Shown in pieces: positions 19,333-63,878 of a stretch of 64,000 nucleotides of DNA. Source of the DNA: Platerodrilus igneus. Lineage: Eukaryota; Arthropoda; Insecta; Coleoptera; Lycidae. The notes below the pieces were generated by a model that did no database searches, had not been told where the DNA came from, and worked only from the letters and a program-made list of their open reading frames with translations. The stretch is taken from contig JARFIW010001458.1 of NCBI GenBank assembly GCA_036346225.1, positions 3,968,001 to 4,032,000 on the forward strand, written 5' to 3'. The translations under genes were made by a program, and so were the position numbers. How positions within the stretch are numbered: position 1 is the first letter of the stretch; every line of letters starts with the position of its first letter.

Positions 19333-19334
<2 letters not shown>

Positions 19335-19373: not shown

Positions 19374-19377
<4 letters not shown>

Positions 19378-25396: not shown

Positions 25397-25522
25397 CTAA
25401 AAGATGTTCATTTGCAAAAGTATTTCTATTTATATTTTCGCAGCGTAATATAAATTTTTATGTAATAATCGCAATTTAATAGACTTTCAAGAAGCTTGTT
25501 AGTGGAACATATGATTTTAGAT

Positions 25523-25705
25523 TTAGATGTCCAGCTCCTTTAAATATAGACGTCTTAGATTAAATTTTTGAAGTAATCGAGGATTGCAGCGTTTACAGGA
25601 GTATGATTCATAACTCATTGGCACGCAACGTCTCCACCTCCACTTCTTATTTCTGATTTTACTTTCACTAATTAAGCTCTTTGCTATATAAACGCTGTTT
25701 AGCAC
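25523..25705 (-). CDS. Small conserved ORF (left arm, unit 2)
   Basis: Identical in length and sequence to 9,898-10,080. Unknown function, one CxxC pair, divergent from PolB. Confidence 0.4.
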   Translation of the reverse strand: MLNSVYIAKSLISESKIRNKKWRWRRCVPMSYESYSCKRCNPRLLQKFNLRRLYLKELDI

Positions 25706-25786
25706 CAGAATTGTCAGTTGTTATTCACTCTTGCTTGCTGGAAGTTCAAAGTGCTCGTTTTGATATACGACTTTGTTTGTAGAAAA

Positions 25787-27061
25787 ATGAAATCATTAAA
25801 CGAGTTTATGTGCGAGGTGTGTTTTGCTATCTGCCGTCACCGAGCGAACCTGCATGGTTTACCCTCTGGCGATTAAAAAGCGTGGTGCCTCACCAGCTGC
25901 TAGTGAACCGGCCACCAAAAGCGTTGGGACGAGTCTTCACATGCGATATCTGCGGCTTCACGTTTAACAGGAAAGATCATTTAAACCAGCACGATAACAC
26001 CATGAACGTTGGGTGACGTTAAACGTGGAGTGCCACCACCGTTAGACGCATCCACCCCGAAGAAAATTCGTGTGAACATTAGGTGTGATGCGTGCATGGT
26101 AGATGTACCGAGCTCGACATACGCAGCACACCTACGGACAAATGCGCATAAACTAACTGCAGGTAGAACTTTGGATGGGAATTCTGCGGTACAAATAGTT
26201 AGCACCGTCTTCAATACCCGGATTGCAATGTATCGGGTAAAAAACATAGATGGTGTTGTTAGATTGCAAGAATTTCGACACATGCAAATTGATCGGTTCA
26301 AGCGATTAGTTAGTGACAAATTGGCAACCCATCTTGCTGTAACGGTGAATTGTAAATTGTTTGGACTTTACAGCAAGATGGGGGTAAACAACGTACCGAG
26401 TACATCAACACTAGGAACCAGGTGATCAGGCAATCTAGTTACTCGGAGGTCATCTATACTTCCTTCATGGTGGCGATGGTTACGAAATCTGACGAATATT
26501 AGGAGAAAAAGTCTGGTAAGTCTTTAAAATAAAATGCGTTGCAAATTTTTAATTTCTTTTTAGGTTGTACCCTCCAAAAGGTGTTATACTTAAAATTAAC
26601 ATTAACAAGTATACTCCTCTGCGAGATTCCTCCTACATTGACCTGCCAAATGGGTTAAGGATAAGAAGGCGTTTGTCAATATGAATTACTAAGCCTCTAT
26701 TTGCTTTGCATGGTCCATTGTGGCAGCGCTGCATCCCGTCGACCAACATCCTAAACAGGTATCAAAATATCCTCATTACGACACTGTCCTCAACTTGGAG
26801 GGTATTGATCTACCTGTCACTATCACTGATATTTTTAAGTTTGAGAAACAGAACAACATTAGCGTTGTTTTCGGGGTGGTATGTAAATCCATTGTGGGAC
26901 GGCTACATTTCACCCAACAGGATAGGGATCGTCACATCAATATTTCGTTCATACAGAATGATGAGAAGACGCACTACGGCTGGATCAGGAGACTGCGGTG
27001 CAAAGTGCTGTCTTGTCCCTCAATCGCTGAAAATGGAAGCACCTTCAATTTTTTTATATAA
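25787..27061 (+). pseudogene. Protein-primed PolB, N-terminal part (left arm, unit 2)
   Basis: Copy of 10,163-11,435 with longer open stretches: 26,009-26,425 (138 codons, CDAC finger to LFGLYSK) and 26,720-27,061 (113 codons, AALHPVDQHPKQVSKYPHY to HYGWIRRLRCKVLS). The C2H2 finger FTCDICGFTFNRKDHLNQH is open at 25,930-25,990. Intron 26,516-26,563. Catalytic exonuclease and polymerase domains are missing. Confidence 0.82.
26516..26563 (+). other. Spliceosomal-type intron in PolB (left arm, unit 2)
   Basis: GTAAGT ... TTTTTAG, 48 bp. Same position and phase as the other three copies. Confidence 0.72.
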
Positions 27062-27325
27062 CTTCGGCAAATTAATTCTACGGATAAAGTTACTTTCACA
27101 ACTTTGTAAAGATTTACAAATTAAATTAACTGGTAATAATCATGCCGATATTTGTGCTGTTGATCTTATAGGTGAGATTAAAACATTCCAAAACTTTTTA
27201 ACTGCCGAAAAATATGCAGCTGTAATATTAGAATTTATTTACAAAAATGACCTAATAAATACTTTTCCAAATCTAGCAACTTCTATCCGTAATTTATTGA
27301 CAATGCCTGTATGCGTTGCCGAAGT
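27062..27325 (+). pseudogene. hAT dimerisation-domain fragment (unit 2)
   Basis: Continuous frame from LILRIKLLSQLCKDL through CAVDLIGEIKTFQNFLTAEK, YAAVILEFIYKNDLINTF and PNLATSIRNLLTMPVCVAE. It then runs into the right arm with no hAT sequence beyond. Confidence 0.75.
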
Positions 27326-28443
27326 GGCGATCCCTATTTTGTTGGGTGAAATGTAGTGATCCCTCAATGGATTTACATACCACCCCGAAAACAACGCTAA
27401 TGTTGTTCTGTTTCTTAAACTTGAAAATATCAGTGATAGTGACAGGTAGATCAATACCCGCCAAGTTGAGGACAGTGTCGTAATGAGGATATTTTGATAC
27501 CTGTTCAGGATGTTGGTCGACGGGATGCAGCGCTGGCACAATGGACCATGTAAAGCAAATAGAGGCTTAGTTATTTATATTGACAAACGCCTTCTTATCC
27601 TTAACCCATTTGGCAAATCAATGTAGGATTAACCTCGCGGAGGAGTATACTTGTTAATGTCAATCTCAAGTATAACACCTTTTTGAGGGTACAACCTAAA
27701 AAAACTAAAACTTGCAACGCATTTTATTTTAAAGACTTACCAGACTTTTCTTCTAATATTCGTCAGATTTCGTAACCATCGCCACCATGAAGGAAGTATA
27801 GATGACCTCCGAGTAACTAGATTGCCTGATTACCTGGTTCCTAGTGTTGATGTACTCGGTAAGTTGTTTACCGTCATCTTGCTGTAAAGTCCAAACAATT
27901 CACTATTCACCGTTAGAGCAAGATGCGTTGCCAATTTGTCACTAACTAATCGCTTGAACCGATCAATTTGCATGTGTCGGAATTCTTGCAATCTAACAAC
28001 ACCATCTATGTTTTTCACCCGATACATTGCAATCCGGGTTTTGAAGGCGGTGCTAACTATTTGTACCGCAGAATCCCCATCCAAAGTTCTACCAGCAATT
28101 AGTTTATGCGCATTTGTCCGTAGGTGTGCTGCATATGTCAAGCTCGGTACATCTACCATGCACGCATCACGCCTAATGTTCACACAAATTATCTCTGGGG
28201 CGGATGCGTCTAACGGTGGTGGCACTCCACGTTTAACGTCACCCAAAGTTCATGGTGTTATCGTGCTGGTTTAAATTATCTTTCCTGTTAAACGTGAAGC
28301 CGCAGATATCGCATGTGAAGACTCGTCCCGACGCTTTTTGGGGGCCGGTTCACTAGCTGTTGGTGAGGCACACGCTTTTTAACCGCCAGAGGAGGTAAAC
28401 CGTGCACATAAACCTCGCACATAAACTCGTTTAATGATTTCAT
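27326..28443 (-). pseudogene. Protein-primed PolB, N-terminal part (right arm, unit 2)
   Basis: Copy of 11,698-12,816. Frame 27,830-28,246 open for 138 codons. Start ATG complement 28,441-28,443. The first finger region is frame-broken near 28,385. Intron 27,696-27,740. Shared stop at 27,753-27,755. Confidence 0.8.
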
Positions 28444-28524
28444 TTTTCTGCAAACAAAGTCGTATATCAATACGAGCAATTTGAACTTCCAGCAAGCAAG
28501 AGTGAATAACAACTGACAATTCTG

Positions 28525-28707
28525 GTGCTAAACAGCGTTTATATAGCAAAGAGCCTAATTAGTGAAAGTGAAATCAGAAATAAGATGTGGATGTGGAGAT
28601 GTTGCGTGCCCATGAGTTATGAATCATACTCCTGTAAACGCTGCAATCCTCGACTACTTCAAAATTTTAATCTAAGACGTCTATATTTAAAGAAGCTGGA
28701 CATCTAA
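28525..28707 (+). CDS. Small conserved ORF (right arm, unit 2)
   Basis: Sixty codons, same start and end as the left-arm copies, about 8 substitutions, no stop. Retention of the frame in all arms is notable among otherwise broken genes. Confidence 0.42.
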   Translation: MLNSVYIAKSLISESEIRNKMWMWRCCVPMSYESYSCKRCNPRLLQNFNLRRLYLKKLDI

Positions 28708-28835
28708 ATCTAAAATTATATGTTCGACTAACAAACTTCTTGAAAGTCTATTAAATTGCGATTATTACATAAAAATTTATATTACGCTGTGAAAAATATA
28801 AATAGAAATACTTTTTGCAAATGAACATCATTTAG

Positions 28836-29364
28836 TTGTTAATTGAGGAATTGAACACGTCCATGATTGTGAATTCTAGTAGTCGGTTGTTTAAACAAGT
28901 TATAAATAAGCTGCCATTTGAGGCTAACATCCCGTCTTATTATTTTTGTGGAACAGACATTAGGCTGGAAGAGCGGTTAGTTGGAAGTGTTCCAGGAATC
29001 AACGATTTGGACCGTTTGTGTAGAGATCACGACATTGCTTACTCCAAATACCCTGACGATATTCCGGCTACACATCGAGCAGATAAAATTCTAGAAGAAA
29101 AAGCTTTGGAGCGAGTAAATTCAAAAAACGCAAAGTTTGATGAAAAGGCCGCAGCTTGGTTCATGACAAACGCTAGAAAAGTCGAAGGAGAAATGGGTTT
29201 TGGTATCAAAAAAAAAAAAAATCAATTTCAAGGGCGGATGCTTAAGGAAAATAAAATCAGCAATTGACCGAGTCGGATCTGATAATTTAGAAAAGTTACT
29301 AAAAGATGGTATTCATGTTGGAAAAACAATCGTGAAAGGTGCTGGAGGCAGAAAGAGGATATAA
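28836..29364 (+). pseudogene. PLA2-domain protein (right arm, unit 2; most complete copy)
   Basis: Open for 143 codons from MLIEELNTSM, with CGTDIRLEERL, LCRDHDIAYSKY (catalytic His-Asp and Tyr) and EKAAAWFMTNARK. A frame break in the A-tract at 29,207-29,221 separates the basic C-terminal tail (KSAIDRVGSDNLEKLLKDG ... GGRKRI), which ends with TAA at 29,362-29,364. Next gene starts 4 bp on, so the two look like a viral operon-like array on one transcript. Confidence 0.82.
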
Positions 29365-29367
29365 GTT

Positions 29368-29660
29368 TTGCGTATTATACCCGTACCGCAAAAGGGTGGT
29401 ATTTTGCCATTGATTGCTATTTTCGCTGGACTAAGTGCTTTAGGAGCCATGACAGATGCCGCTGCAAAGATTTCAAAAGCTGTTAATGGCCAGTTAAAAG
29501 AGGGCGAACGTCACAACAGCAGAATGATTGCAAAAGCAGTAGGAAAAAAAGGAAATTGACTATTTTTAAACTTTATAAGAGAGGCGCCGTATTATTTTTG
29601 AAATCGTACACGGGACGTGTATGTTCTAAAAGTGTTGAAAAACAAAGCAAGTTACCTCGA
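29368..29660 (+). pseudogene. pX-like small capsid/membrane-active protein (right arm, unit 2)
   Basis: MRIIPVPQKGGILPLIAIF starts a frame with a hydrophobic helix (AGLSALGAMTDAAAKI) and a charged helix, ending GKKGN at a TGA (29,557). In related elements this sequence continues into an LKPY-type stretch. Here LFLKSYTGRVCSK follows in another frame, so the gene and the protease may once have been one reading frame or adjacent genes. Confidence 0.62.
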
Positions 29661-30003
29661 AGAGCTTTCACCGATGTAAATATAAGGAAATACGCATCCG
29701 GCATTCTTCTTTTTTGCGATGCTTTTTCTATTGATCAGTTGAACGAGACTAAACCGCATGTCATCGATTCGGGTGTGATTAATTTAGATATCACAAAAGG
29801 ACCAGGTGCTCATTAGGTGAGATACCGAAAACGTGCAAATACTATGTTACACTGCGATTCGTTTGAAGGCTTGAGACCACCGGAAGAAGTCGAGAGTTAT
29901 TTTTGGGAATGCAAAGTTTGCAACAACAGTGTTTCGGAGCAGACTCACAACACTTACAATTGTGAACATTTAATGCTAAAGTTTCTCAGCGAAAATGTTT
30001 AAA
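29661..30003 (+). pseudogene. Adenain-like cysteine protease (right arm, unit 2)
   Basis: Frame 29,556-29,816 carries LPRRAFTDVNIRKYA, DSGVINLDITKGPGAH ending in the catalytic His, then TAG at 29,814-29,816. The next frame, still in phase, continues VRYRKR ... HCDSFEGLRPPEEVESYF and NTYNCEHLMLKFL to 30,002. Only the single nonsense codon interrupts the domain. The triad residues His, acidic residue and Cys are all visible. Confidence 0.78.
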
Positions 30004-31340
30004 ACTGTGAGCGTGTTTGTGTAGTGTAGCGTTATATGGACGAGACCTACTTACGCAAGAATTAAATTGATGCAGGACAAAGAGTATGCTTTGTGGTTAG
30101 TGGACCTTTACATGTAACGCTTTGCAAAACATACACCATGGGAAAAAGTTTAATATTTTGACGATTCAGAGAAGCATAAAATAATTGTTGAACAGGGCTG
30201 GTGCGAATTAGAAGAATTAAGTACATATATACAGAAGGTGTTCAAACAATGGTTCAGTAAAGTTCCAGACATAAACGAGAACATTGGTAATCTTTATTAA
30301 AAATTGAACCTTTCTGTGAAATGGCGTGTGTATAAATATGGATGGTTAAGCGGTTGCTACGTACCTAGAAGTAGTCGGAAGAATAGTAAACACCGTGCTA
30401 ACTACCAACCGCGGAGAATGGGGGGATTTGCCTACGTACCAACCACAAACAAAAATAGCACATCGCCCTCGACTATCTATTAACAATGAAAATAAATTAA
30501 GATTTCTTGATTTACAGGTACAAAGAAAAGTATTGAATTTAAGTTACATTGTAAAGAACAAATTTTATAAAGGATCCACGAAGTGCGCAATTCGTAGTTA
30601 AGAGGTAATAAAAATCATTAAAATAGTAATGCTTAGATTTTCTCAATAGCAAGTGTGTTAAATTAAAGTATTAAATATAAACCTAGGTGTAATAAGGATT
30701 AAAGAAAAATAACCAAAAGCACTAGCAAAGCTAGCTTCTAAACATGGATGGTGAACTGGTTTCACAACATCAACCGTTGATAAATAAGGATCCTCGATGT
30801 ACGTAAAAGAATACTAGTCATATACCTCTATGCGTCGTGGTGCGTATCTTGCAATCACTCGTGGGTAAGTCGGCACAGCAATGCCATGGTTGGCAGGGTT
30901 CATTCACCCTGTATCGTAATTACAGCAGTGATCCAAAGACAAAAAGCAATTGATTCACTGCAACGAACAGGTGGGTCTACACAAAGAATGAACCCATTTG
31001 GCCTCCAGCTAAAAAAAACTAAAACAAGAATCTGATTGGAATGGGTACGCGCGGGGAAACTCACCGAATACACACAAGACACCTCTTAGTTGTTGAACAG
31101 AAAACCGTGCTTTGCTTTTGCAGTACGGTGACGAATGAATTTAGAAAATATTTCGACGTACAAGCTGTAGAATCAAATCCGACAATGGTTCAAACAACAC
31201 GGAGTCTAACTGCAAATCCTAGCTTATTAAAGCGGGGTAAAACTGGAAAACCCGGCTTATATCGGATAGTGCGCGACCTTATTTCAACAAGTCATTACAT
31301 TGGAACAATTGAGAAAACTATTATACCACGGTCGTAAGGT
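30004..31340 (+). pseudogene. Outer viral-element region with two unidentified frames (right arm, unit 2)
   Basis: A broken frame with DDSEKHKIIVEQGWCELEEL and STYIQKVFKQWF around 30,165-30,265 recalls the ELxDIxxYI-type segment of large capsid-like proteins in these elements. This is a weak impression. It continues through LNLSVKWRVYKYGWLSG to 30,601. A second frame (31,041-31,337) ends SHYIGTIEKTIIPRS. No firm assignment. Confidence 0.35.
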
Positions 31341-31554
31341 ATACCAAGATAATGGGTACCTAAAACAGGATACAATTATTTAATTGTAGCATAAATTTGT
31401 CGTTTCGGCATAAATAAGTTGTCGAAGAATTTAAGAGAATAAGGGATACTTAAAGCAAGGCATAAACTATTTAATTTATGGAATAAATTTTCGGTTTAAA
31501 AGCAAAGGGATTTGAGTTGAGGAATTTATTCGAGAGCGTATTTATTATTAATTA

Positions 31555-31991
31555 TGTTGAAAATAAACGTAACACGGTTTAACGCTAGCGGTATTGCAAG
31601 CCGTTATATTTACTTTGACTTTAAGCGGGAGTTTCTAAATACATAAATAAAGCAAGTGATAATAAAGATACTTACTAAATTAGCGTAACTCCTAATGGAT
31701 GAACAGGAAACCACACAGCTGCTAGATTCAAAAAAGGGCACTCTTAATTAAAATAACTATTGATGGCGGCGGATGCGTTCTACAAGGTGGATGCTGATCT
31801 TTGGAACGGCGACACTAAATCATTACTTTATGCAATTGGAAACACCACCTTCACATTTAAGAACAATAACGTAACTAACAAATATAAATTGAACTTTTAA
31901 CACCTGCGAGTTATCAACTTGATAATATCAATATAACAAATCATTGCATTTTGTATTTTAAATATAAAATTAACTTTCTGGCTCCAACGCA
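31555..31991 (-). mobile_element. Candidate BEL/Pao 3' LTR (right arm, unit 2)
   Basis: Copy of 16,207-16,641 with the same inferred limits. Confidence 0.35.
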
Positions 31992-32169
31992 CCGCTCACC
32001 CAATACAATGTTTTGAGATTAAATATAAAAGCGAAAACACAAAAAACAGAAAAAAAACTTAAGGCGTTTATTAGTGTGACATAAATTCATCACATGTATA
32101 AAGTAACCTAAATAAAGCAATATCAAATTCAAAACAAAAAAAAAATTTATACTTCCAGGAACGAAAAAT

Positions 32170-33152
32170 AAATTAATAATCTAACAGCGGAAAGGCTGCC
32201 ACTTTACATAGAGGTCTAACATAGGCATCGTTACTAGTTTTAATTTTAGCAACCCTAACTATGCCGTCCTTGCCAGGATAAATCTCCAAAATTTTTCCAA
32301 GAGGTCAAAACAAGGGGAGGATATCACTAGTCTGCAATATAACAATATCACCAACTTTGATATTTGGTGGCTTTGCACCCCATTTTTCTAGAGGAGCTAG
32401 CGTGTGTAAACATTCTGTGGATCATCGCCGCCAAAATGACTGGGTATCTTGTTGGAGTAAATGATCGCGATCTACACTAGTCAGTTTAACATTTTCAAAG
32501 TCATTTTCTGGTGGGGCTAAAAGAGAGGAACCAATTTAAAAATGACCTGCAGTGAGATAATCAGTATCTTTATTTGCATCGGATAATAATAAACCTAGTG
32601 GACGACTATTCAATATTGCTTCTACACGTGTGATAACAGTAGTTATTTTTTCAATAGTAAAAACTAGTGGCTCTAAAAACTGTGCGACTGATGCTCGGCG
32701 GATTTTGACGCCCGATTTCCATAAGCTTCAAGATGAGGAGCCGCTGGTGAGTTAAAATTCCATTTAATTCCGTTATTTGAAAAATGATCAGCAATAGCGG
32801 TATCAGAATCTTTTAACATTATAAACATCGGCAAAATAATTGAATGCGCCTATAATATTGGTGCTGCAATCCAAAATATTTCTTGGCACAAACCTCTGCG
32901 AGCAACAAATATATCTATGGCAGCGAGAAATGCAAAAGTTGACAAACCCGATACAAATCCTAGATGTACCGCCGTAGTCGCCGAACAAACAAATATTGCC
33001 AAATAACCCGTAGATCGCGGAGCATTTCTTCTGTGACTTTCTTTGATGATCCAAGATACAGCAAAATCGATCCCTGTATTGCAGAACGGACGCGATTGCC
33101 GAACTCTAGCCTTCAGCAAATTCGCCATTTGGGGCACAAATGTTTGAGCTTT
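32170..33152 (-). pseudogene. BEL/Pao integrase, 3' half (right arm, unit 2)
   Basis: Copy of 16,820-17,793. Open frame 32,850-33,236 includes KAQTFVPQMANLLKARV, NTGIDF, YLAIFVCSATTAVHLGF and VARRGLCQEIF, then a frame break at the second catalytic box. Its first 28 residues are LTR-derived. Confidence 0.88.
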
Positions 33153-33991
33153 TGTTAAGGTAACTTTCTGAAATAGAGAGTTTCTGCAAGAAATTACTAC
33201 GCCCTTAATTGAAACCGCTAATTTAAACCATTCCACATGTTATTCTCCTAAATAATTCAAACTTAACAATCATTCAAGTATTAAAAACCGTCCTGCATGA
33301 AAATGTTCCTCAATACGTGAAATATACCCTATAAGCATTTATCAATTCGTTAGAAACCAACAAGCATTTGTCTCTACTAAACCCTTAGAATTCATCTTAA
33401 ACGATTTTAAATAATGTCTTTTTCTTGGAAATACGCGCCCGCTATGTTCATTGTTATTCCCTGAAAAGATTAAATGTGTTTGTTATTTGCTCGTATTTCT
33501 TGAAATTCCGAGTTGTTACATTTGCACGTGCTGATAGCAACGTCTTTCCTTATTAAATTATTCCAAGAATATTTATAGCGTTAATCTATAATCTTACAAA
33601 CCCTTGTTCTGCTCGAGTAGGTTTTACCTTGTATACATTTTCGCTTGCCTTCTCAGAATATTCTACACCAATATCGGTGGGAATCGTTTGATATTTTCCT
33701 CCATTATCTTCCTAGCTGTATAAATACGACAACTTTGAAAAGCTTTCTAAACTATTGTATGTTTTCCTACAAGTTCATAAAATAAATTTCTTTGTGACAG
33801 GTTTTCAATTCAATTTTATTTCTAGGTCTCCAACCCCACTCTCTGAAGTTTTTGAGCTAGTCCGAACTCTGATTCTTTTGAAGTTTAATTCTGTCCCTGT
33901 GTTTGGTTGCGGTATTCGGTGTAGGCAATTTTTCTACTACTTACTGTGATGCTTTCTTTCTTGTCCGCACAGAATATCGCAACACGTAACA
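33153..33991 (+). mobile_element. Element X 5' LTR (unit 2)
   Basis: TGTTAAGG ... ACGTAACA, 839 bp, nearly identical to 17,794-18,632 as part of the tandem duplication. The primer-binding site after it is damaged. Confidence 0.7.
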
Positions 33992-34690
33992 AAAGTTGGC
34001 ATAACGTGTCTTCCGATTTTCGATACTTGTTCTTTTACTTAATGTTGGTTCCAATTTCGTATTTGTTTTTTTACTTATTGTTGGCTTTGATTGTCGATAT
34101 CGTTCTTTTTACTTACTGTTGGCTTCGGTATTCAAAACCATTCTTAATGCTGTAGGCTACGATTTTCGAATCCCTTCTTCTACTTAAGGTGGGCTACGAT
34201 TTTCTAAACCTTCCTGTTGTTCTTAAGGTTTGCTTGATTTCTGAAACCGTATTTTTTGTAAGAGTTTGTTCTTGATTTTTGAAAACCTCTATTCATACTC
34301 AACACGTGGTCCTGAATTTTTCTGTACACATGCAGTACGAATCCTTTTTTTGTGGTTTTGATTCTAAGGTCTATGGAGGTGAACTCCGCACATCCGTGAT
34401 GAGTGCTTTTTCCATAGAGCGCGATGGTGCACTTCTTCACCACCCGCTCATTGTTTTCGATTACGATGCTGACCTCGCAGCAGTTAAAACTGTTATACAA
34501 AAGTTTCAATAATTCCTTGAGAAATTTGATGAAGACAAATCTTCACTTGCGTTTCAACGCATTAGTTCCCTGTGGATCCACGCAAGACGTCGTTGTATTA
34601 AGTTTTCTCCACTAAAAACGGATCACAAAATGCGCTGGGGATTACTTCAGACTTTAGACAATCTCCGCGAGTTATGTATCCCCCAATTTA

Positions 34691-34692
<2 letters not shown>

Positions 34693-34740
<48 letters not shown>
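34693..34740. repeat. (TA)n microsatellite (unit 2)
   Basis: Counterpart of 19,335-19,373, longer by about nine bases. Confidence 0.98.
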
Positions 34741-34743
<3 letters not shown>

Positions 34744-35409
34744 TAATAGAATCTAATAGGAATGATTAGAGATTGTTAAATAAATCATAAGTCAATTGCA
34801 ACAATGTAATACAAGGATAAACCAGACAGGTTATTAACAGTTCATGAGAACGGATATGCAACTTTGTATCCGAGACGACAGTGATGCGCAGGTGTCAGGT
34901 CACAGACGGTTAACATACCACAATTACCTAGAAATAAGATTGTTACAATGTAATAAAGTGTAGAATTAAAGGTAAAGCAGACATGAAATCTGCATATGAG
35001 GGGGCAGGAGATTATAAGAAGGCCGGGAGCTCAAGGCTCGTCAGTCAGTCTTCGAACTCCATACTTCGTTGTTCAAGCTATTCAATAGAGTCAGTCTGAG
35101 TACTACAGCTTTTGCATTGTTGTTTACCTAGACTGCTCGCCCAAGTACAATTAATTAATTATTTTCGATTTAAAGTTATTTTATACAGTTATTCAAAATT
35201 CCAGAATAATTTATGTTTAAGATAAATAGATTGCTAAGGGTTTGGAAACATTTTTTTAAAAAACATCGCTTCAAAGGTCCGAACCTTAACTCGCGTTGCT
35301 TTCAAAACAAAAATAGAAAATTTCCGTCACGCTACTACTTCGGTAGCTATTTCTGATTCTAGTCACATTTTTTCTGCTGAACCAGATTTTACTTACAACT
35401 CCACTACAA

Positions 35410-35811
35410 TTGAGGAAAATACTCTTACTCCACATGATGAAACTGTTAAGATTCTTCCTACGCCTACGGGTATATCAAATACTTCTTCTGTACTTTCTGC
35501 TGTTCCTATTCCTGTATCTACTTTTACTCGTGCGGTCAAATGCTTTAATTGCGACAAACCAGGTCATGTTTTTACACGTTGTACTCGTCCTCAAATACAC
35601 TATTGCAATGGTTGCGGGCATAAGGGAGTTTATCGCCGCAACTGTTCGAACTGTCATCCTACTACTAATAGGTTTCCGAATAATACTTCAAATTCTGTTT
35701 TCAGTTCTAGGAGTCAAATTTCTTCTGCTTCTAATTCTACGGTCTTTTTTGTACCTTATTCAGGTCATCCTCCTACTACTGTCAAAACATACCCTTCTTC
35801 GGCAAATATAA
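35410..35811 (+). pseudogene. Element X gag, zinc-knuckle region (unit 2)
   Basis: The relevant frame reads RAVKCFNCDKPGHVFTRC and YCNGCGHKGVYRRNCSNC at 35,541-35,657: one canonical CX2CX4HX4C knuckle and one variant. The longest ATG-initiated frame here is a different, Leu-rich frame that I judge spurious. Downstream of 35,701 the sequence is unique to unit 2 and leads to the repeat-rich segment. Confidence 0.65.
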
Positions 35812-36068
35812 TTCAAACAAAATTTCTTCCGTTTCTAGTTCTACATCTCTTCTGTACCTCCTCCTGCTTGTCAAACTATCATTACATCATATTCTTTTCA
35901 GTCATATGTGTCTTCAAACTATAATATTGATTTCTACGACTATCACTTCCTCCTCAGACTGAATCTCTTTCACTATTGAAACCCATACTGCAAATTAGTG
36001 ACTTACAAGTAGCAACTCAAGAGTTTATTCCTGCTTTCTTAAATTATTCTTCTTAAGAAATTTTCATT

Positions 36069-55010: not shown

Positions 55011-56661
55011 GTTCCAATAGAAACCCGTACTCACCCGTAGCCAGGAATTCACGATATTTGCAATGGCATTAGAATAGTAATGTAATTTTTGCAGGAATTA
55101 AAGTACCCTTACAGAAAAGGATAGATTAATGTATTCAAACAGTTGGTTGTTATGTAAAGCACCTGTTGAAAACTTGGTTTCGTTGGGCTATTAAATGTTG
55201 TTAGTTCCTTTTTATTGAATTAATGTGATCCTAATAAACAAATCCTATTTACAGTGTTCGAATTGTCAAGTGCGGATTAATCATTTTGTCAAGTTTGAAC
55301 AATTTATATAACGGCATTTCTTAGATATTTTAAAACCTGACCCAAAGACGCCATTTTTATAAAACTTTAGCTCCCCTAGGAAGCATTTTAAAATTATGTC
55401 TAGCATGTGTATTTTGTTTGGTAGGAGAGTTTCTTGTCTGTATACCTTCAGTGATACAGTTGATGTTGATATTTATTTTGTATTGTTTATAATTTTTGTT
55501 TTTATTTTATTTTGGAATAGTGACTCATATGCTTAAATATTTAAAATAACTTTTGTTTATTAGGGTTCTTATTTGTTTGTTATTATTTGTTTTTAATCTT
55601 TGGACTATACTGAGTGTCCGCTATATCGAGTGTTTGTCTTCAAAGCTGAGAACGCATTATGCCATTTTTAAGAATTTTTGCCCATTAATTGTATAAAAAA
55701 ACAAGAAAAAATCTAAACAGTAAGAAAAAATTTAATTGGTATATAATAAAAACAACAAAAGGTAGTACATTAGTACGTAAAGAGAAAATTAAAAATTATA
55801 ACAAATATCATTGCAGAATTGTTAAATTTTAAATTAGTTTTTAAAATAAACATTATATTATTTCTTATTATTCTTAGACACCTTGATGCTAAATAATTAT
55901 ACTATTGGATAGGTACCATTACCTTTCCTTTATGTCGAATCCGTGAACAGAAATTTGCAAAAATAAATATACCACGTTAATTACCCATGTTCATCTTTGA
56001 AATCCAACATGGGTATAAACGGTTATGCAATGAAAACGTAGCTGAATTATGTAGATCAGTGAAAGATTCTTTTATAATTGTTGCAGGGTAGGATTCAAAT
56101 TTATAGTTGCGCCACTGAAAAAGGGTCCATGGGCAGAGTAAGTCTGAAAAGCACAGCTTTAAACGGCTCAACTATGAGAGCCAATACCTTCAGATTGCAC
56201 TTTATAACGGTTTCACCCCTTTTGAGCCAGTGAAAAACACTTGTGAGAACACGATCTGAATACTATTGAAGGTACTATATAGGAGGGCTTACTACACGTA
56301 CGCTTGCAAAATATTAACCACGCCTAACAACTTCATTACCATAAAAGATGATTTGTCACGAATTTGTTCCTTTTGAAATTGATAAACAAATTCCAATGTA
56401 TAATACGGTTATGGTGTGTTTATATTTGGATACGTTGTAGATAGAGGATTTCTTGGGTAAATTTTAGTATGGTAGCATTACTAATAAGCAAGAAACCCCA
56501 TAATTGTAAATATAATAATTTTAAAAGACCTAATTGGATATGTTTGTTTAACCTCCTGAAAAACCTTAACTTCCACGTTCTCTTACAAAAAGTAAGCAGA
56601 CTCAAAGTCAGATTATTTATTAGCAAGAAAAAAAGCCAAACTGTCAAATAGTTTACTGTAT
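55011..56661. other. AT-rich intergenic DNA, nothing recognised
   Basis: May include the last ~200 bp of the mariner-like element up to about 55,215. Otherwise no frame or repeat of note until the Gypsy LTR. The four bases GTAT just before the LTR are the element's target-site duplication. Confidence 0.5.
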
Positions 56662-57183
56662 TGTAACGCGCTACTACTACCGCGTTTCTTTAATTTAAAA
56701 CAAGTAATAATAATGGTCTTTATTACTCACTGTTCACAAGTCTAATTAACAGTATATGCCTTATTTATAGATGTTTTCAGTTCACTTAACAATGAAGCAC
56801 TATTACACTAATGAATTTACAAGCACTAATATCTTCTTAAACTAACTTCTTTACCCTAGGTCCAATAACCACACTAACACAACTATTTGTTTATACACTT
56901 CTATTTATTTATGTATACTGCAAGCTGCATGCACGTTAGACACAGCATATCATTTATGTATATATTCTAAAAACTCAACTACGTTTACTTTACAACGATA
57001 TAATTTATATTAGACATTCAAGAATAGACTAACTCTTACATTCATAAGCGGCCTTATATATACCCTGCATTAAGATATGACTCATTATCTAGAACTTTGT
57101 AGAAGGATTCTCGAATGCTGAAGAATACGCTGTGCCCCGGGCGTTTGTATGTTTGACGGGTTGCCTAATAGTGGATCGCAACA
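56662..57183 (-). repeat. Gypsy 3' LTR
   Basis: 522 bp, TG...CA ends, direct copy of 62,720-63,240. The pol frame may run into it (stop complement near 57,089). Confidence 0.95.
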
Positions 57184-57920
57184 CTGCCCCCTCTTTAAAA
57201 CCGTTACGTCTCGTAACTGTAAATCCATCTTGACGCCAATTCGATGACTGGTGACGGTATCGGCAGCTATCTCCTCTGGTGCATCCACCGCGTCGTTGGA
57301 AGTAACAGTCAACACTCTTTTCCTGGTCTTGGTAGGCAACCGGTTGATAACAACAAACAAGAACCTGGACGTTGGTTCCCTGGAAAACTACTTCTAGCAT
57401 ATTTCGGACTATCCTCCAGTCTAAGCGATCCAGTCCACAGCCCAGCTTGGGCACCGCTAGTCTCGTTACTCCATTTTCCATCATCTGCGCCTTAAGATTT
57501 AGCAAAGCCTCCCATAGATGTCCATAACTAGGTCTCTGCCATGAAGAATTTTGGTGACCAGATAGTAAACATAACGATTTTTATCTTGAAGGACCAAAGA
57601 TTTTCCTACAGTTGGCTGCTGTTGTACTAATTCATCCACACATCCAAACTTTTTCTTGAAAACAACAGCTATTCCCCTTGACATTGCCAAATCTTGAGCT
57701 ACGCAATGTGCAAGGGAATACTCTTCTGGTGCTCTAAACAGATCTTGCTGTTTTTCAACAACAACGCCAAATCTCGCTTTAGCGGAACCACCATACGCCG
57801 CCATAAAGCTCTCAAAATCTACATTTGGCTCATGATTAATAACTTGCCGAACACCATTATCATTATTCGAGTCTTCCTGGTTGTTGCCAGCGTAGGATGT
57901 TAAACGGTCAAAGTGTACCA
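57089..57920 (-). CDS. Macro domain (OARD1/TARG1-like) plus CCCH zinc finger, C-terminal extension of Gypsy pol
   Basis: Follows the integrase C-terminus (GKPKVVHFDRLTSY) in the same frame. The macro domain runs from GVVVEKQQDLFRAPEEYSLA through VAQDLAMSRGIAVVFKKKFG and YVYYLVTK to MMENGVTRLAVPKLGCGLDR and VLVCCYQP. In human TARG1 the catalytic pair is Lys84 and Asp125. The equivalents here are the Lys of YYLVTK (codon 57,550-57,552) and the Asp of GCGLD (57,428-57,430). Both are present, so hydrolysis of ADP-ribose from acidic residues is plausible. A one-base frame break lies near 57,550, and the second part is the frame 57,089-57,505. A CX7CX5CX3H finger (57,251-57,307) follows. No signal peptide or membrane segment, so this is not an env gene. 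Confidence 0.85.
57184..57200 (-). promoter_or_regulatory. Gypsy polypurine tract
   Basis: On the minus strand TTTTAAAGAGGGGGCAG abuts the 3' LTR start. The pol extension reads through it. Confidence 0.75.
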
Positions 57921-59104
57921 CTTTCGGTTTACCACGAGGATCTTCTGATCCGGTACACTACATCATTAATCCTTTTAACACTTCGTACGGCCCTTCCCAT
58001 TGTCTTTGTAGTTTTGGCGACAATCCACGTTTTCTTTGTGGATTGTACAACCACACTAAATCTCCAGGTTGATAACCACCTTCTTGTGCTCTCGTGTCAT
58101 ATTGTGATTTCATTCGATCGCTTGCTGCCTGTATATTCTTTCGGACGTTTTCGTGAATACTATTTGATCTTTCACGAAGCTTACTAACGTAATCTTCACC
58201 GGCGATCTCTTCTCCAGGTTTAAATCCAAACTGAAGATCACATGGTAGCCGCAATTCACGTCCTAGCATTACGCAAGCGGGCGAGTATCCTGTGCTGTCA
58301 TGTACCGAAGATCGGTACGCCAGTAGGAACAAATGTAGATATTGGTCCCAGTCCGTTGATGTTCAGAGACAACTTTGGCCAGGTACTTTCCTAACGTTCT
58401 GTTCATTCTTTCAACCATTCCATCCGATTGAGGATGAAGTGGCGTGGTTCTAGTTTTCCTGATTCCAAGATGCTTGCAGACGTTTTGAAACAACGCTGAT
58501 TCGAAGTTCCGACCTTGATCGGAGTGTAATTCCAACGGAACTCCAAAACGACAAAACAACTCCTGACTAGTACATCTGCAACCGTCTCGGCTTCTTGGTT
58601 AGGTATAGCATATGCCTCCGGCCATTTGGTAAAATAATCCATTGCAACCAAGATGTATTTATTTCCTTTCTCTGATTCAGGAAACGGACCAGCTATATCA
58701 ATGGCTACCCTCTCAAAAGGATTCCCCACGTTATACTGTCTCATTGGGGCTTTCCGTTTTGAGACCGGGCCATTTGCAGAGGCACACAATTCACATTTCC
58801 GGCACCACTCCTTCACATCATCTTTGCAGTTCACCCAATAGAATCTTTCTCTCACTCTTTCGAGAGTTCTTTTCACGCCAAAGTGCCCTCCGGAAATACC
58901 ATCGTGCAAGTGCTGCAACACTTCCGGCACTCTGCTTCTCGGCACTATCACTTGAAGTCTCTCAGTGCCATCTTCAAATTCCAGGCGTCGTTTCAAGATT
59001 CTATTTTCCATCATCAAGGAGTCCCACTGTGCCCAGTATGCCTTCAGGCTCCTACTTGAAATACTAATTTCTTCCCAAGCTGGTCGTTGTCCTCTATTTT
59101 CCAC
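57921..59104 (-). CDS. Gypsy integrase
   Basis: Zinc-binding HHCC visible in HLHDGISGGHFG and CRKCELCAS. DDE residues in VAIDIAGPFPES (first Asp), LHSDQGRNFES (second Asp) and TTPLHPQSDGMVERMNRTL (Glu). C-terminal GPY-like part GDLVWLYNPQ ... QRQWEGPYEVLK. Frames break near 58,560, 58,330 and 57,960. Inserts the cDNA into host DNA and here leads directly into the macro domain. Confidence 0.93.
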
Positions 59105-59487
59105 TCAATAATACGTCCCAATTCGGCGTCATTCTCCTGGTCTTCTCGTATTCTTTCGGGTTGCCAAGTATCATCGGTTACCGTCATTCTATGGATGACA
59201 CTTATTTTCTCTTCCATCTTGGAGCAATGATTGCAGTCCACCGGACAAGGTCTCCTTGATAGAGCGTCTGCATTCCGATGGCTAGTTCCTACACGATGTT
59301 CTGTATCAAAGTCATATTCCTGCAGTCGCTCTATCCACCTTGCCACTTGCCCTTCAGGATTTCGAAACTGCAGTAACCATTTCAGTGCAGCATGGTCTGT
59401 TCTCAACAGGAATTTACGGCCGTATAAGTACTTATAAAAGTGCTCTACGGATTTGACGACGGCCAACAGCTCCTTCTTGTCACACAA
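59044..59487 (-). CDS. Gypsy RNase H
   Basis: Frame with KELLAVVKSVEHFYKYLYG, LRTDHAALKWLLQF, QVARWIERLQEYDF and GTSHRNADALSRRPC, all standard for the RNase H of Gypsy Pol. Continues into the spacer before the integrase. Confidence 0.92.
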   Translation of the reverse strand: MCDKKELLAVVKSVEHFYKYLYGRKFLLRTDHAALKWLLQFRNPEGQVARWIERLQEYDFDTEHRVGTSHRNADALSRRPCPVDCNHCSKMEEKISVIHRMTVTDDTWQPERIREDQENDAELGRIIEWKIEDNDQLGKKLVFQVGA

Positions 59488-59572
59488 TAGTTCCTTTCTG
59501 GCCGCGACAAGACCTTGCTGAAATACCCAATAACTTTTTCTTGTCCGTCCTGCACTTGAGAAAGAACGCCTC

Positions 59573-60464
59573 CTATAGCTGTGTTACTGGCGTCGGTATC
59601 CAACACAAATTTCCCTCCATCCGTGGATAACTCAAAATTGGTGCTGTAACTAGTAGCCGTTTCAGTTGTTCAAATGCCCTGTGGCAGTCGTCATTCCAAT
59701 CATATTCTTGTCCATCTTCGGTTAATTTTGTTAACGGTTTGGCAATGTTCGCAAACCCAAGTATAAAACGTCGGTAATATGTGCACAATCCTAGAAAACT
59801 GCGTAGTTGGTGTATATCTGCTGGTGTAGGCCACTCTTGTACCGTTTTTATTTTGTCAGGGTCAGCTCTTATTCCGGTCTCCGAAACGACATGTCCTAGG
59901 TATTTCACCTCTTTTCCAAATAGGTGGCACTTCTTGGGGCTCAATGTAAGGTTTGCCCCGTAATCTTTGGAATATCTCCTCTAGGTTCTTAAGATGTTCT
60001 TCAAAAGACCGGCCTAACACTATCACGTCGTCCAGGTACACCAGACATGTCTTCCAGGACAGTCCACGCAGTACCGACTCCATCAATCGTTCAAAAGTAG
60101 CAGGAGCATTGCATAATCCAAATGGCATGACCTTGAACTGCCATAATCCAGTTCCAATTGTAAACGCAGTCTTTTCTTTATCGTTTGGCTCCAAGCCTAC
60201 CTGCCAGTATCCGCTTTTCAAGTCCAAGGTCGAAAACCATTTAGATCCGGATAGAGTATCTAAGGTGTCATCAATTCTGGGCAAAGGATAGCTGTCTTTC
60301 TTTGTCACGTTGTTAAGCCGCCGGTAGTCTACACAAAACCTTGTCGACCCGTCCTTTTTCTTGACAAGCACTACCGGGGATGCCCATGGACTATTCGAGG
60401 GTTCAATCACTCCCTGTTCTTCCATATCGGTGATAATTTGCTCAGCTTCCTTACGTTTTGCCAA
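59573..60464 (-). CDS. Gypsy reverse transcriptase
   Basis: Motifs in order: SPWASPVVLVKKKDG, RFCVDYRRLNNVT, FSTLDLKSGYWQV, FKVMPFGLCNAPATFERLM, catalytic YLDD in LVYLDDVIVLG (about 60,027-60,038), then in the next frame KCHLFGKEVKYLGHVVS and LRSFLGLCTYYRRF. The frame break near 59,950 falls in the thumb region. Active site intact. Confidence 0.94.
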
Positions 60465-61346
60465 AGGAAGCCGCCTGGGTGTTGTCTTATCGGTTGCGCA
60501 TCTCCAGTATTGATCTTGTGTTGCACAACATTCGTCCTTCCTTTCTCACTATCATCCAGTGCAAACACACCTCGATATCGTCCGACCAGTTCTTTTACCT
60601 TGCCCAGTTGGTCGCCATTTAATCCTTGACACGAGGGTATCAACATATCCAGCAATTTCTGTGAGCAACCGTTGGTTGGTTTATTTTTCGTGTCGTCCAC
60701 ACAACGTTTAATATGACATACTGGAATGCAACTTCCCACAATCATGCCTTTCTTCAGGGTCACTGTATGGGGATTAATGTTCAGCACCCTTACTGGTACC
60801 ATATTTCGAGACTTTACCAGCGTTCTTCCAATCAGAAGTCCCTCCTGACCCATTCCCGATTCAGTTGCTTCCATCATGCATACTTGTCCTTCCCGGAGCG
60901 TACCATCCGGGCGTCCCATTACTATCATTTCCGCCTTCTCGGGTATTTTTACATCGCAAATCATTCGTAACTTGCATCGTCTGGTTACTCCTACCTTGAA
61001 ATGGAATCTCATCATCATCTATCCGAAGCACATTTTCTTTCATGTTTACATGAAACCCATATTCTCTCATGAGATCCATTCCCAAGATCACTTCTTCTGT
61101 AATTTCAGCTACCAACACTCGATGATTAATTAATTTGTCCCCAATTGTCAACATAACGGCAGTCTCTCCGTGAGTACCAATCTTCTCACCACTTGCCGTT
61201 CGGAGACACACCGATACAGGTAGCACTTTTCCACGACCAACCAAATCTGGTCTCACAATAGTTCTTGTCGCTCCTGTATCCACAAGTAATCGGACAACCC
61301 TACCATTAATTCTACCATCGATATAAATGCTGTCCAGACTTTCCAC
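60407..61346 (-). CDS. Gypsy aspartic protease and linker to RT
   Basis: YIDGRINGRVVRLLVDTGAT holds the catalytic Asp-Thr-Gly at about 61,270-61,282. The flap-helix equivalent is VILGMDLMREYG. A frame break near 60,940 precedes a linker (MVPVRVLNINPHTVTLKKG ... GRYRGVFALDDSEKG) that leads into the RT. Confidence 0.88.
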
Positions 61347-62637
61347 CGACGATGCAGCACGGATGATAATCTCCGGGGCACTACGCTGTGCTGTCGAAGT
61401 TCGCCCCTTACATGGACCAGCTTTGGCACAACCGGTTGTTTCTTTGGTTGAGTACAGCGTCTCTGCATATGGCCAACTTCACCGCAGCTCCAGCATCGTA
61501 GACGCCATCTCCGCGGTCGTTGTAGTTCCAGCCTTTCTGCCACACGGTTGACTATTTCATCTATGCTGTTCTGAGCTTGACCAGGTTCCTCTAAGGCAGA
61601 CCGAACTTTGTGACCCATCCTGTGTGATGTCTGCTTAGCTGCTTCAAATTCAAGCGCATGAGCCAGTGCGTCATCCAGACATTTTTGGCCGTGCTAGTCT
61701 TAGCGCTTGCTGTATTTCACTGTCTTTGATGCCATCCACAAATGTTTGAACAGCCAGTTGTTCGAGGAAACTATCTGGTGCCGTTGGGTATGCCAATCTA
61801 ACTAATCTGGCGATGTCAGCTTCGAATTCTTGCAGGCTTTCACTTGTCTTTTGCGAGCGGTTCTTAACTTGTGCGTGGTAAACCTGGTGAAGGTGAGCAT
61901 CTCCATATCTCATCTCAAGCTTCGATGTTAAGAGGCCGTAATTATTCTGCTGGTGATCGGGAATCGTTTGTAAGATGTTAAGAGCTTCCCCCCGTAGGGC
62001 CACTATTAGGGAGATAGCCTTCTTTTTGTTGCACCAACCGTTGGCTATTGCAGCAGCTTCAAATTGTTTCAAATATGTGGGCCAAGGTGTTTTACCATCG
62101 AAATGTGGGTGGTTTCACTTTAAATTTAGACGGAATTGACTCGCTTCTTTCCAGGGTTCTTATTTCTGGAATGTTCTGATTAACAACTTGGTTTGTTAAT
62201 TCAAGTGGCCGCGTTCTTAGTGAAACCACTTGATCTTGCAGCCTCCTCATATCTTCTTTCATTTTTACCAATTTACTGTCCAATTTTTGCTTAGCTGTTT
62301 TACCTGTTCAGTGACATCTTCTTTCAATGCAATGGAGCTTTCCATTAATCTTTGTTCTAACGTGGCCGTTTTTCATTCAACTCTTCCTCATTTTCATCGC
62401 ATTTTCACTAAACGTTTCTATTTTCCTTAGCATTTTCAGTTAACCTTTGTAAGTCGATTCCAGTTCAACTGACCTCACTAAATTTTCACCGTTTAGTGTC
62501 ACTTCCAGTTTAGCCGACCTCTCCTCCATTTTCTCAGCATTTTCGTTTAACTTTTCTTCTATACCCGATTTAAAATCCTTAAGGAAATTCATTAAATTTT
62601 CTGCCTCCATCTTATTTTGACTCCTTGTAACTGGCAT
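61253..62637 (-). CDS. Gypsy Gag
   Basis: Starts MPVTRSQNKMEAENLMNFL (62,637), followed by two coiled-coil-like charged segments, the capsid part (AISLIVALRGEALNILQTIP, YHAQVKNRSQKTSESLQEF, FLEQLAVQTFVDGIKD), and one zinc knuckle CWSCGEVGHMQRRC (about 61,456-61,497). Frame breaks near 62,440, 62,290, 62,085 and 61,675. Packages the element RNA. Confidence 0.88.
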
Positions 62638-62719
62638 ATATATAAACTACTTAAATGTCTTTAGACTGTGTGCTTTCTTTAAATTAATCACTATATACCC
62701 CACAAATGCCTGACACCAG

Positions 62720-63240
62720 TGTAACGCGCTACTACTACCGCGTTTCTTTAATTTAAAACAAGTAATAATAATGGTCTTTATTACTCACTGTTCACAAGTC
62801 TAATTAACAGTATATGCCTTATTTATAGATGTTTTCAGTCCACTTAACAATGAAGCACTATTACACTAATGAATTTACAAGCACTAATATCTTCTTAAAT
62901 TAACTTCTTTACCCTAGGTCCAATAACCACACTAACACAACTATTTGTTTATACACTTCTATTTATTTATGTATACTGCAAGCTGCATGCACGTTAGACA
63001 CAGCATATCATTTATGTATATATTCTAAAACTCAACTACGTTTACTTTACAACGATATAATTTATATTAGACATTCAAGAATAGACTAACTCTTACATTC
63101 ATAAGCGGCCTTATATATACCCTGCATTAAGATATGACTCATTATCTAGAACTTTGTAGAAGGATTCTCGAATGCTGAAGAATACGCTGTGCCCCGGGCG
63201 TTTGTATGTTTGACGGGTTGCCTAATAGTGGATAGCAACA
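62720..63240 (-). repeat. Gypsy 5' LTR
   Basis: 521 bp, direct copy of the 3' LTR. In element sense it is followed by CTGGTGTCAGGCATTTG, where the primer-binding site should be. I do not assign the tRNA. Confidence 0.95.
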
Positions 63241-63878
63241 GTATTATAGAGCATTATGCTAATAACAATAAGTGGATCAAATTAACGTTTGGCGCATGTA
63301 CTGCGTCGTGTTAAAAAACTGAAATTCAACTTCTCTTCTGCCAAACTTTATATTTCCCTGTTGTTGGGAGAATCTTGTCAACATCGTAAACTATCGATCC
63401 GTCTGCTGATCCCTTCGCAAGCATGGTAGGGTGTTGCATAGCAACAGTTGGAGGTCGTCCGTTGTAATTTTTGATTTCAATCAAGTTAAGAGTAAAACTT
63501 AGTGGAATCCAATTTTATCGAATGCAAATGAGAAAATACGTTGGTGAATCTAAAACTGTTTAATTCAACATTTTAAATAAATAAGTATGTTTTTTCAAAG
63601 TACAGCGCCTTTACGGTAAGTGTATTATCATCAGTTAGAAATTGAACTAACATTGAGGTATGTGTGAAAACATCGGTTTTATTAAATACCCGTCTTATGA
63701 GCAATTATAGGAAAGCAGCATATTTATTACAAGACATTATAAACGTAATATGAAATGTGTTAATTGACTATGTATGGAATTTTTACTAAAATGGCGTAAA
63801 TGGTGTTGAATATAGTGCCAGGGTAATTCAAGATTTGTATTTTCAGGATTTTTCCATTGCGTTAGGATTTTACTCGTA
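63241..63878. other. AT-rich DNA beyond the Gypsy element
   Basis: Starts with the GTAT target-site copy. No gene or repeat recognised. Confidence 0.55.

What the first reader, a model, noticed from the sequence alone, without database searches (positions are those of the whole stretch)
57089..57920. A Gypsy retrotransposon has captured a TARG1-type macro domain
Seen: after the integrase of a young, LTR-bounded Gypsy element the same frame continues into a macro domain whose segments (SLAHCVAQDLAMSRGIAVVFKK in parts, YYLVTK, VPKLGCGLDR) align with the OARD1/TARG1 group and keep both catalytic residues, Lys and Asp. Known: TARG1 removes ADP-ribose from glutamate/aspartate, and several RNA viruses carry macro domains that reverse PARP-based antiviral marking. 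Inference: the element may use it to remove host ADP-ribosylation from Gag, Pol or the integration site. I know of no described Gypsy family with this module, but cannot search.
Basis: partly seen in the sequence, partly recalled or inferred. Interest (0 to 1): 0.9.

Follow-up and report, generated by a model that had tools for sequence, protein, structure and literature searches.

The report
Jumping gene carrying an ADP-ribose eraser
A family of insect-type retrotransposons has fused, behind its integrase, a protein module very like the animal enzyme that strips ADP-ribose marks, followed by a zinc finger; the module is kept in many copies and in several beetle genomes, which suggests that the element needs it.

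Summary
On the minus strand of 56662-63240 lies a Ty3/Gypsy element (LTRs 99.2% alike, 4-bp target duplication). In this copy the macro frame is broken in two, so 'the same frame continues' is wrong here; it is right in other copies, e.g. L009 (723 aa: integrase, macro, CCCH). All 30 copies fetched from an integrase search carry the module. Relatives occur in Harmonia, Molorchus, Aromia and Callosobruchus, and as fragments in Brassicogethes and Pyrocoelia. The elements' macro domains form one clade (100/98), so one capture is likely. The catalytic Lys is kept in 128 of 128 listed relatives, the Asp in 125; dN/dS is 0.20-0.27 against 0.87-2.74 in a shifted frame. The predicted fold matches TARG1 (0.9 A, 44% identity). 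Against: only 1 or 2 of those 30 copies have an unbroken frame; short deletions, possibly assembly errors, break the rest. Activity and target are untested. Macro-domain ORFs in fish retroviruses are a partial precedent. I judge this a new variant: an integrase-fused ADP-ribosyl hydrolase.

The parts
56662..57183 (-). 3' LTR (TGTTGC...GTTACA, 522 bp)
62720..63240 (-). 5' LTR (521 bp)
56658..56661 (.). target-site duplication ATAC, outside 3' LTR
   Evidence: flanks printed
63241..63244 (.). target-site duplication ATAC, outside 5' LTR
   Evidence: flanks printed
57184..57200 (-). polypurine-tract-like stretch before the 3' LTR
   Evidence: sequence; label by inference
57251..57307 (-). CCCH zinc finger (C-x7-C-x5-C-x3-H), same frame as the C-terminal macro piece
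   Evidence: PF00642 20.6 bits, cut-off 20.5
57341..57774 (-). TARG1/OARD1-type macro domain, split over two frames in this copy
   Evidence: open in L009
57550..57552 (-). codon of the lysine aligned with TARG1 Lys84
57428..57430 (-). codon of the aspartate aligned with TARG1 residue 125
57775..57920 (-). variable linker between integrase C-terminal domain and macro domain
   Evidence: 24-41% identity to relatives
57958..58362 (-). integrase C-terminal piece (SH3/GPY-like)
   Evidence: below Pfam cut-offs here, over them in L009
58403..59104 (-). integrase zinc-binding domain and part of core
   Evidence: PF17921 75.1 bits; PF00665 26.0, below its cut-off 32.6
59044..59583 (-). RNase H piece
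   Evidence: PF17917 59.5 bits
59862..60545 (-). reverse transcriptase piece
   Evidence: PF00078 106.6 bits
60861..61478 (-). aspartic protease
   Evidence: PF13975 45.8 bits
61253..61693 (-). gag zinc knuckle (CCHC)
   Evidence: PF00098 24.4 bits
61671..62646 (-). gag frames (broken); two pieces scanned, no Pfam match; the piece 62440-62646 was not scanned

Best explanation
A lineage of Ty3/Gypsy retrotransposons captured, probably once, a TARG1/OARD1-type macro domain from an animal host and fused it, with a CCCH zinc finger, to the C-terminus of its integrase. Most likely it is an active ADP-ribosyl hydrolase (Lys/Asp dyad) carried in the particle or integration complex, where it removes ADP-ribose that host PARPs put on element proteins, on the ends of its nucleic acid, or on proteins at the integration site; the CCCH finger would hold it on RNA or DNA. 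Shown: anatomy, homology, single clade in the rows used, presence in other copies and species, purifying selection; the fold is predicted. Inferred: catalysis, target, benefit to the element.
For: Natural open frame in L009: integrase H2C2, core, C-terminal domain, Macro (26.2 bits, cut-off 22) and a CCCH-like finger (below cut-off) in 723 aa. Human TARG1 E 1.1e-37, gap-free over 132 residues. AlphaFold2 model pLDDT 84.9; best Foldseek match the TARG1-ADP-ribose complex 4j5s, rmsd 0.9, TMt 0.97, 44% identity, then DarG, alphavirus macrodomains much lower. Integrase C-terminus, macro, CCCH in this order in proteins of Harmonia, Molorchus, Aromia and Callosobruchus. Element macro rows one clade 100/98 among 130 rows. 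Lys 128 of 128, Asp 125 of 128 listed proteins. Module in 30 of 30 fetched integrase-chosen copies. dN/dS 0.20-0.27, 95% limits within 0.09-0.63; shifted frame 0.87-2.74. Four copies with LTR pairs 99.8-100% alike and matching 4-bp duplications: recent transposition.
Against: Few copies have an unbroken frame: all four marks in one frame in 1 of 30 integrase-chosen, 0 of 30 macro-DNA-chosen and 5 of 10 Pfam-chosen copies, the last biased to open frames; a second integrase-chosen copy, L068, has a 306-aa frame with 5 of 6 marks. The Lys codon is gapped in 9 of 30 and 30 of 30 of the two DNA-chosen sets. Older copies among themselves give dN/dS 0.49, little below the shifted frame's 0.65, and the shifted-frame limits are wide (for example 0.35-3.58). 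For CCCH the limits include 1. No activity, expression or particle data. The loop that is mostly GAG/GKG/GGG in the OARD1 rows is SRG in 123 of 127 element rows, so substrate may differ, or the domain may bind without hydrolysis. One of eight older copies has Glu for Asp. Host PARPs were not examined.
Confidence: 0.6

Rival explanations
1. The macro domain is a reader, not an eraser: as with the chromodomain at the integrase C-terminus of chromoviruses, it tethers the integration complex to ADP-ribosylated chromatin or DNA breaks.
For: Same position (integrase C-terminus) as the chromodomain (recalled). The loop change to SRG could alter catalysis. The bases after the 3' LTR follow RTAY in 25 of 29 copies (counted by eye), so there is a local site preference, though this need not be due to the macro domain.
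Against: Lys and Asp of the hydrolytic dyad are kept across relatives. A pure reader would not need both.
Confidence: 0.2
2. The amplified window-type copies are non-autonomous: the frame breaks are real, shuffled by recombination, and intact relatives act in trans. The macro domain is then only a passenger in the recent burst.
For: Only 1 of 60 DNA-chosen copies has the four marks in one frame (L068 nearly so). LTR pairs of four recent copies show no indel in 4 x 522 bp, and 13 of the 17 other-copy LTRs at 99% or more identity to the window's have no gap, so indels are not everywhere. Copies look like mosaics: about 1 mismatch per kb to the window in the macro part (selected) but 14-18 per kb in integrase. 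Recombination would also give all four combinations; substitution columns do so in 3 of 15 pairs.
Against: dN/dS among the 30 integrase-chosen copies is 0.20 (0.11-0.39) and one substitution stop was seen in 30 x 235 codons, gapped codons left out: the frame was under selection until very recently.
Confidence: 0.3
3. The frame breaks are mostly assembly errors in a long-read assembly; the recent copies are intact in nature.
For: In the macro-DNA-chosen set the eight recurrent gap columns all lie in runs of 3 to 5 equal bases; seven of them are polymorphic, in 24 patterns over 30 copies, with all four combinations in 18 of 21 column pairs. In the integrase-chosen set it is 19 of 21 pairs, and 81 of 128 deleted cells lie in runs of 3 or more. 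Indel rate 2.5-3.8 per kb while mismatches range from 1 to 20 per kb. A 15.7-kb tandem duplication in the window shows 362 indel events against 110 mismatches.
Against: No indels in four LTR pairs and few between near-identical LTRs. Two of the seven recurrent columns of the integrase-chosen set lie in runs of 2. In the duplication only 71 of 299 single-base indels lie in runs of 3 or more. That the assembly is from long reads is my guess. This reading is about the state of the copies and does not compete with the main explanation.
Confidence: 0.5
4. Chance juxtaposition: a host OARD1 gene fragment next to one element.
For: None found.
Against: No two of 29 downstream flanks match, yet these copies carry the module; the same fusion is seen in other species.
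Confidence: 0.01

Closest known systems
TARG1 / OARD1 / C6orf130 (ALC1-like macro class)
   Same: Predicted fold, gap-free alignment, Lys and Asp of the dyad
   Different: Part of a retrotransposon polyprotein behind integrase; loop SRG in 123 of 127 element rows instead of GAG-like; extra CCCH finger
Ty3/Gypsy LTR retrotransposons (Metaviridae)
   Same: LTRs, protease, RT, RNase H, integrase with GPY/SH3-like C-terminus
   Different: Macro plus CCCH module in the same frame after integrase
Chromoviruses (Gypsy with integrase chromodomain)
   Same: An extra module fused at the same place (recalled)
   Different: No chromodomain match in 7 proteins scanned; an enzyme-like fold instead
Fish epsilon-like endogenous retroviruses with macro-domain ORFs (Basta 2009 as cited in PMC4977317; one passage seen)
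   Same: A retroelement with a macro-domain protein
   Different: Described there as additional ORFs in vertebrate retroviruses; macro class not stated in the passage; my look-up of the original by a recalled DOI found nothing held
MacroD-type macrodomains of RNA viruses (alphavirus, coronavirus)
   Same: Overall macro fold; thought to counter host ADP-ribosylation
   Different: Much weaker fold match (E 6.5e-8 or worse against 8e-19); other macro class

Membership tests
Ty3/Gypsy LTR retrotransposon | Two LTRs TG...CA with short target duplication | tested here: met
Ty3/Gypsy LTR retrotransposon | Order protease, RT, RNase H, integrase | tested here: met
   window pieces
Ty3/Gypsy LTR retrotransposon | RT groups with Ty3/Gypsy in a tree | not tested
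   placed by domain order only; clade not determined
TARG1-type (ALC1-like) macro hydrolase | Sequence and fold closest to TARG1 | tested here: met
   (PDB only)
TARG1-type (ALC1-like) macro hydrolase | Lys and Asp catalytic dyad | tested here: met
   8 of 8 Lys and 7 of 8 Asp in older copies; in the window copy the domain is frame-broken
TARG1-type (ALC1-like) macro hydrolase | Hydrolyses ADP-ribose from acidic residues or nucleic-acid ends | not testable with these tools
   needs enzyme assay
CCCH zinc finger | C-x7-9-C-x5-C-x3-H (range recalled) | tested here: met
   C-x7-C-x5-C-x3-H; Cys/Cys/Cys/His in 120, 118, 116, 113 of 128 proteins; Pfam just over cut-off in the window, under it in L009
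Chromovirus | Chromodomain after integrase | tested here: not met
   no Pfam chromodomain in 7 proteins
MacroD-type viral macrodomain | Closest to viral/MacroD class | tested here: not met

The most novel reading that the evidence does not exclude
A Ty3/Gypsy lineage spread over insects carries its own integrase-tethered ADP-ribosyl hydrolase that works in the integration step itself, clearing ADP-ribose from cDNA ends, integrase or chromatin where host PARP reacts to the strand breaks: a retroelement-encoded answer to an ADP-ribosylation barrier, with a changed substrate loop (SRG) as its specialisation.
Probability: 0.25. Interest if true: 0.88.

Novelty: new variant of a known kind. Interest (0 to 1): 0.74.

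Why it matters
It suggests that ADP-ribosylation limits LTR retrotransposons in insects, and that an element borrowed an eraser for it. It also gives a second type of integrase-fused module beside the chromodomain. The domain is small, open copies are natural sequences, and the activity can be assayed directly, so an open question (does ADP-ribosylation restrict retroelement integration?) becomes testable. Automatic annotation mostly misses it: Pfam Macro is below the cut-off or absent in 5 of 7 proteins scanned, and names given by sources speak of cleavage-factor or C3H1 proteins, though a few read 'Macro domain-containing' (P0028; P0130 and P0133).

Tried and rejected
Chance match or private insertion: rejected. 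Viral MacroD-type domain: rejected. The 33 IMG/VR loci found with A2 are at best 39% identical and were not opened. Host gene fragment: two macro hits on C307 (L001, L002, frames) look like exons of a MacroD-type host gene (label recalled) and are not part of the element. Taxon: mitochondrial-type DNA (L048) has tRNAs and genes in the order I-Q-M-ND2-W-C-Y-COX1-L(taa)-COX2-K-D (protein labels and 'insect/crustacean ancestral order' recalled); the species was not identified, and 97 COX1 matches point to many nuclear copies. Counting copies by a pattern failed: the machine did not complete. The numbers 1771 and 2213 are first-look candidates, not copy counts. Element clade, host OARD1 gene and host PARP genes were not studied; none of the named rows is a beetle OARD1, so the donor is unknown. 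Of the 40 scored integrase hits I fetched 30; two are the window itself and L017, which hold the module, and 8 were not looked at. P0129 was left out of the tree by my row filter, as were second-set rows of 125 aa or less and duplicates. An error (the reference counted as a copy) was corrected. One search lists the best 120 of 194, another the best 120 of 3302. Of 66 gap columns only 19 lie in runs of 3 or more; the rest are mostly gaps of single older copies. In one search, 38 of the 40 loci L004-L043 were kept; L005 and L008 were dropped as too short. L044-L047 were used only.

Full report
What is in the window. The element is on the minus strand. LTRs lie at 62720-63240 (5') and 56662-57183 (3'), 522 aligned columns with 3 mismatches and 1 gap, flanked by ATAC on both sides. 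Between them Pfam finds a zinc knuckle, aspartic protease, reverse transcriptase, RNase H and integrase in the order usual for Ty3/Gypsy (the usual order is recalled). After the integrase come a variable linker, a macro domain and a CCCH zinc finger; the last frame runs into the 3' LTR and ends at 57089.

In this copy an in-frame stop precedes 57957, and the macro domain is split between frames 57957-57499 and 57580-57089. Searched apart, the two pieces hit human TARG1 at E 5e-18 and 4.7e-13. So the domain is real, but this copy could not make it whole as assembled. Other copies show the continuous frame: L009 2745-4916 is open for 723 aa from behind RNase H through integrase, macro and CCCH, and L004, L010, L012 and L013 keep all five marks in one frame.

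What the domain is. The L009 domain aligns with human TARG1 without a gap over 132 residues, E 1.1e-37, 132.8 bits. An AlphaFold2 model of macro plus CCCH (208 aa, 66 rows) has mean pLDDT 84.9; blocks of the macro core from residue 11 to 140 lie at 89-98, the CCCH part at 66-88. Foldseek's best hits in the PDB are TARG1 (4j5s with ADP-ribose: rmsd 0.9, TMt 0.97, 44% identity), then bacterial DarG, both put in the ALC1-like class by PMC7050489 (passages seen); alphavirus macrodomains follow from E 6.5e-8. In TARG1 Lys84 and residue 125 form the dyad (that review writes Glu125 where the residue aligned here is Asp). Both are present in the element.

Spread and conservation. Searches with the L009 and Molorchus proteins found integrase C-terminus, macro and CCCH in this order in Harmonia axyridis, Molorchus minor, Aromia moschata and Callosobruchus maculatus, in unnamed data, and in a record named Erysiphe pulchra that I suspect to be insect DNA (not tested). 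The Molorchus and Aromia proteins that I aligned (P0004, P0034) do not cover the integrase core; Callosobruchus P0005 has RT, RNase H, integrase and CCCH by Pfam and macro by alignment. A domain search added Brassicogethes aeneus and Pyrocoelia pectoralis fragments with the SRGIA loop; the first has CCCH-like residues behind the macro domain, the second an integrase-tail motif before it. Of the 128 proteins, Lys is kept in 128 and Asp in 125 (one G, one gap, one not covered); most come from two species and three (P0007-P0009) are not of this arrangement, so this is not 128 independent cases. Identity of L009 to relatives: integrase core 75-83%, macro 48-60%, linker 24-41% (seven proteins, core not covered in two). 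In a tree of 130 macro domains (145 columns; few for so many rows) the 16 element rows form one clade, support 100/98. 123 of 127 rows of the element set read SRGIA in the loop where the other rows mostly read GAG, GKG or GGG. This looks like one capture followed by a fixed change in the binding loop; no beetle OARD1 was among the named rows, so the donor stays open.

Copies in the own genome. The genome is 2.71 Gb in 1723 contigs. A search with the macro DNA scored 40 of 1771 first-look candidates, all full length at 99% or more. To avoid choosing on the macro domain I searched with integrase DNA and fetched the downstream stretch of 30 of the 40 scored hits: 30 of 30 have the whole 771-nt macro-CCCH region. 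No two of 29 downstream flanks match at the LTR edge, so the insertions are independent (one of them, L028, runs on into element-like sequence); the first four bases after the LTR read RTAY in 25 of 29 (counted by eye). In four copies the LTR pairs are 100, 99.8, 100 and 100% alike with matching 4-bp duplications. The module is thus part of a recently active family.

Selection. In the macro codons dN/dS of the 30 integrase-chosen copies against L009, L012 and L013 is 0.23, 0.27 and 0.20, and 0.20 among the 30 (0.11-0.39); the same columns read one base later give 2.74, 1.75, 0.87 and 1.39, with wide limits. The CCCH finger gives 0.28-0.41 with limits that include 1. One substitution stop was found in 30 x 235 codons, gapped codons left out. 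Older copies give 0.49 among themselves against 0.65 in the shifted frame, a weak contrast as expected with decay after insertion, and 0.26 against the window copy.

The frame breaks. All four marks stand in one frame in 1 of 30 integrase-chosen and 0 of 30 macro-DNA-chosen copies, and in 5 of 10 Pfam-chosen ones, a choice that favours open frames; L068 of the first set has a 306-aa frame with 5 of 6 marks. The Lys codon has an alignment gap in 9 of 30 integrase-chosen copies and in 30 of 30 macro-DNA-chosen ones; the second choice favours copies that share the window's own deletions. The breaks are short deletions, many in homopolymers, in shuffled combinations. The indel rate is 2.5-3.8 per kb while mismatches range from 1 to 20 per kb, and a 15.7-kb tandem duplication elsewhere in the window shows 362 indel events against 110 mismatches. 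This points to assembly error. Against that, the four LTR pairs have no indel, near-identical LTRs of different copies have few, and the copies look like mosaics, so recombination between truly broken copies would also explain the shuffling. I leave this open, leaning slightly to error.

How it most likely works. TARG1 removes ADP-ribose from acidic residues and from phosphate ends of nucleic acids (PMC7050489, passages). A review says that PARP1 aids HIV-1 integration by repairing the breaks left by integrase, and cites disagreement on whether it is needed (PMC10891851, passages); SIRT6 mono-ADP-ribosylates KAP1 to silence L1 (PMC4695847, passages). An integrase-tethered eraser could therefore act on integrase, cDNA ends or chromatin marks; the CCCH finger may bind RNA or DNA. 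These steps are inference. A reader role, as with the chromodomain of chromoviruses, is the main rival.

Novelty. Seven paper searches in open-licence PMC papers: no title or abstract start that was listed describes a Gypsy element with a macro domain; two searches listed only part of their hits (20 of 3160, 10 of 24), and the papers listed were not read apart from the passages named here. The one related statement is that some fish epsilon-like endogenous retroviruses have macro-domain ORFs (PMC4977317, one passage). Subscription papers and repeat databases were not searched. I call it a new variant of a known kind: a captured module in a Gypsy polyprotein, of an enzyme class that I know (from recall) in no other LTR retrotransposon.

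Noticed in passing
window about 4721-20300 and 20340-35990: Tandem duplication of about 15.6 kb; 362 indel events but only 110 mismatches over 15.7 kb, which suggests indel errors or an assembly duplication.
   Followed up: partly
window 28836-29267 +: Phospholipase-A2-like domain (PF08398, 21.9 bits, cut-off 23.9), as in parvovirus capsid proteins (recalled); possibly from a virus-like or mobile element.
   Followed up: no
window 6405-9105 and 21667-24642, minus strand: Non-LTR retrotransposon frames: endonuclease (PF03372 46.6 bits in 23683-24642) and frames that look like reverse transcriptase (by eye), one set in each half of the duplication.
   Followed up: no
P0009 (Carabus blaptoides, 483 aa): A macro domain (36.8 bits) in a protein whose N-terminus looks gag-like by eye; outside the element clade. 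Perhaps an independent capture.
   Followed up: no
G000, 97 COX1 matches: Probably many nuclear copies of mitochondrial DNA in this genome.
   Followed up: no
L015-L043: Copies look like mosaics: near-identical to the window over the macro part (on which they were chosen) but 14-18 mismatches per kb in integrase, suggesting frequent recombination between copies.
   Followed up: partly
L028, after the 3' LTR: The bases after the LTR (CTGGT) are those that follow the window's 5' LTR, so two elements may share an LTR in tandem.
   Followed up: no
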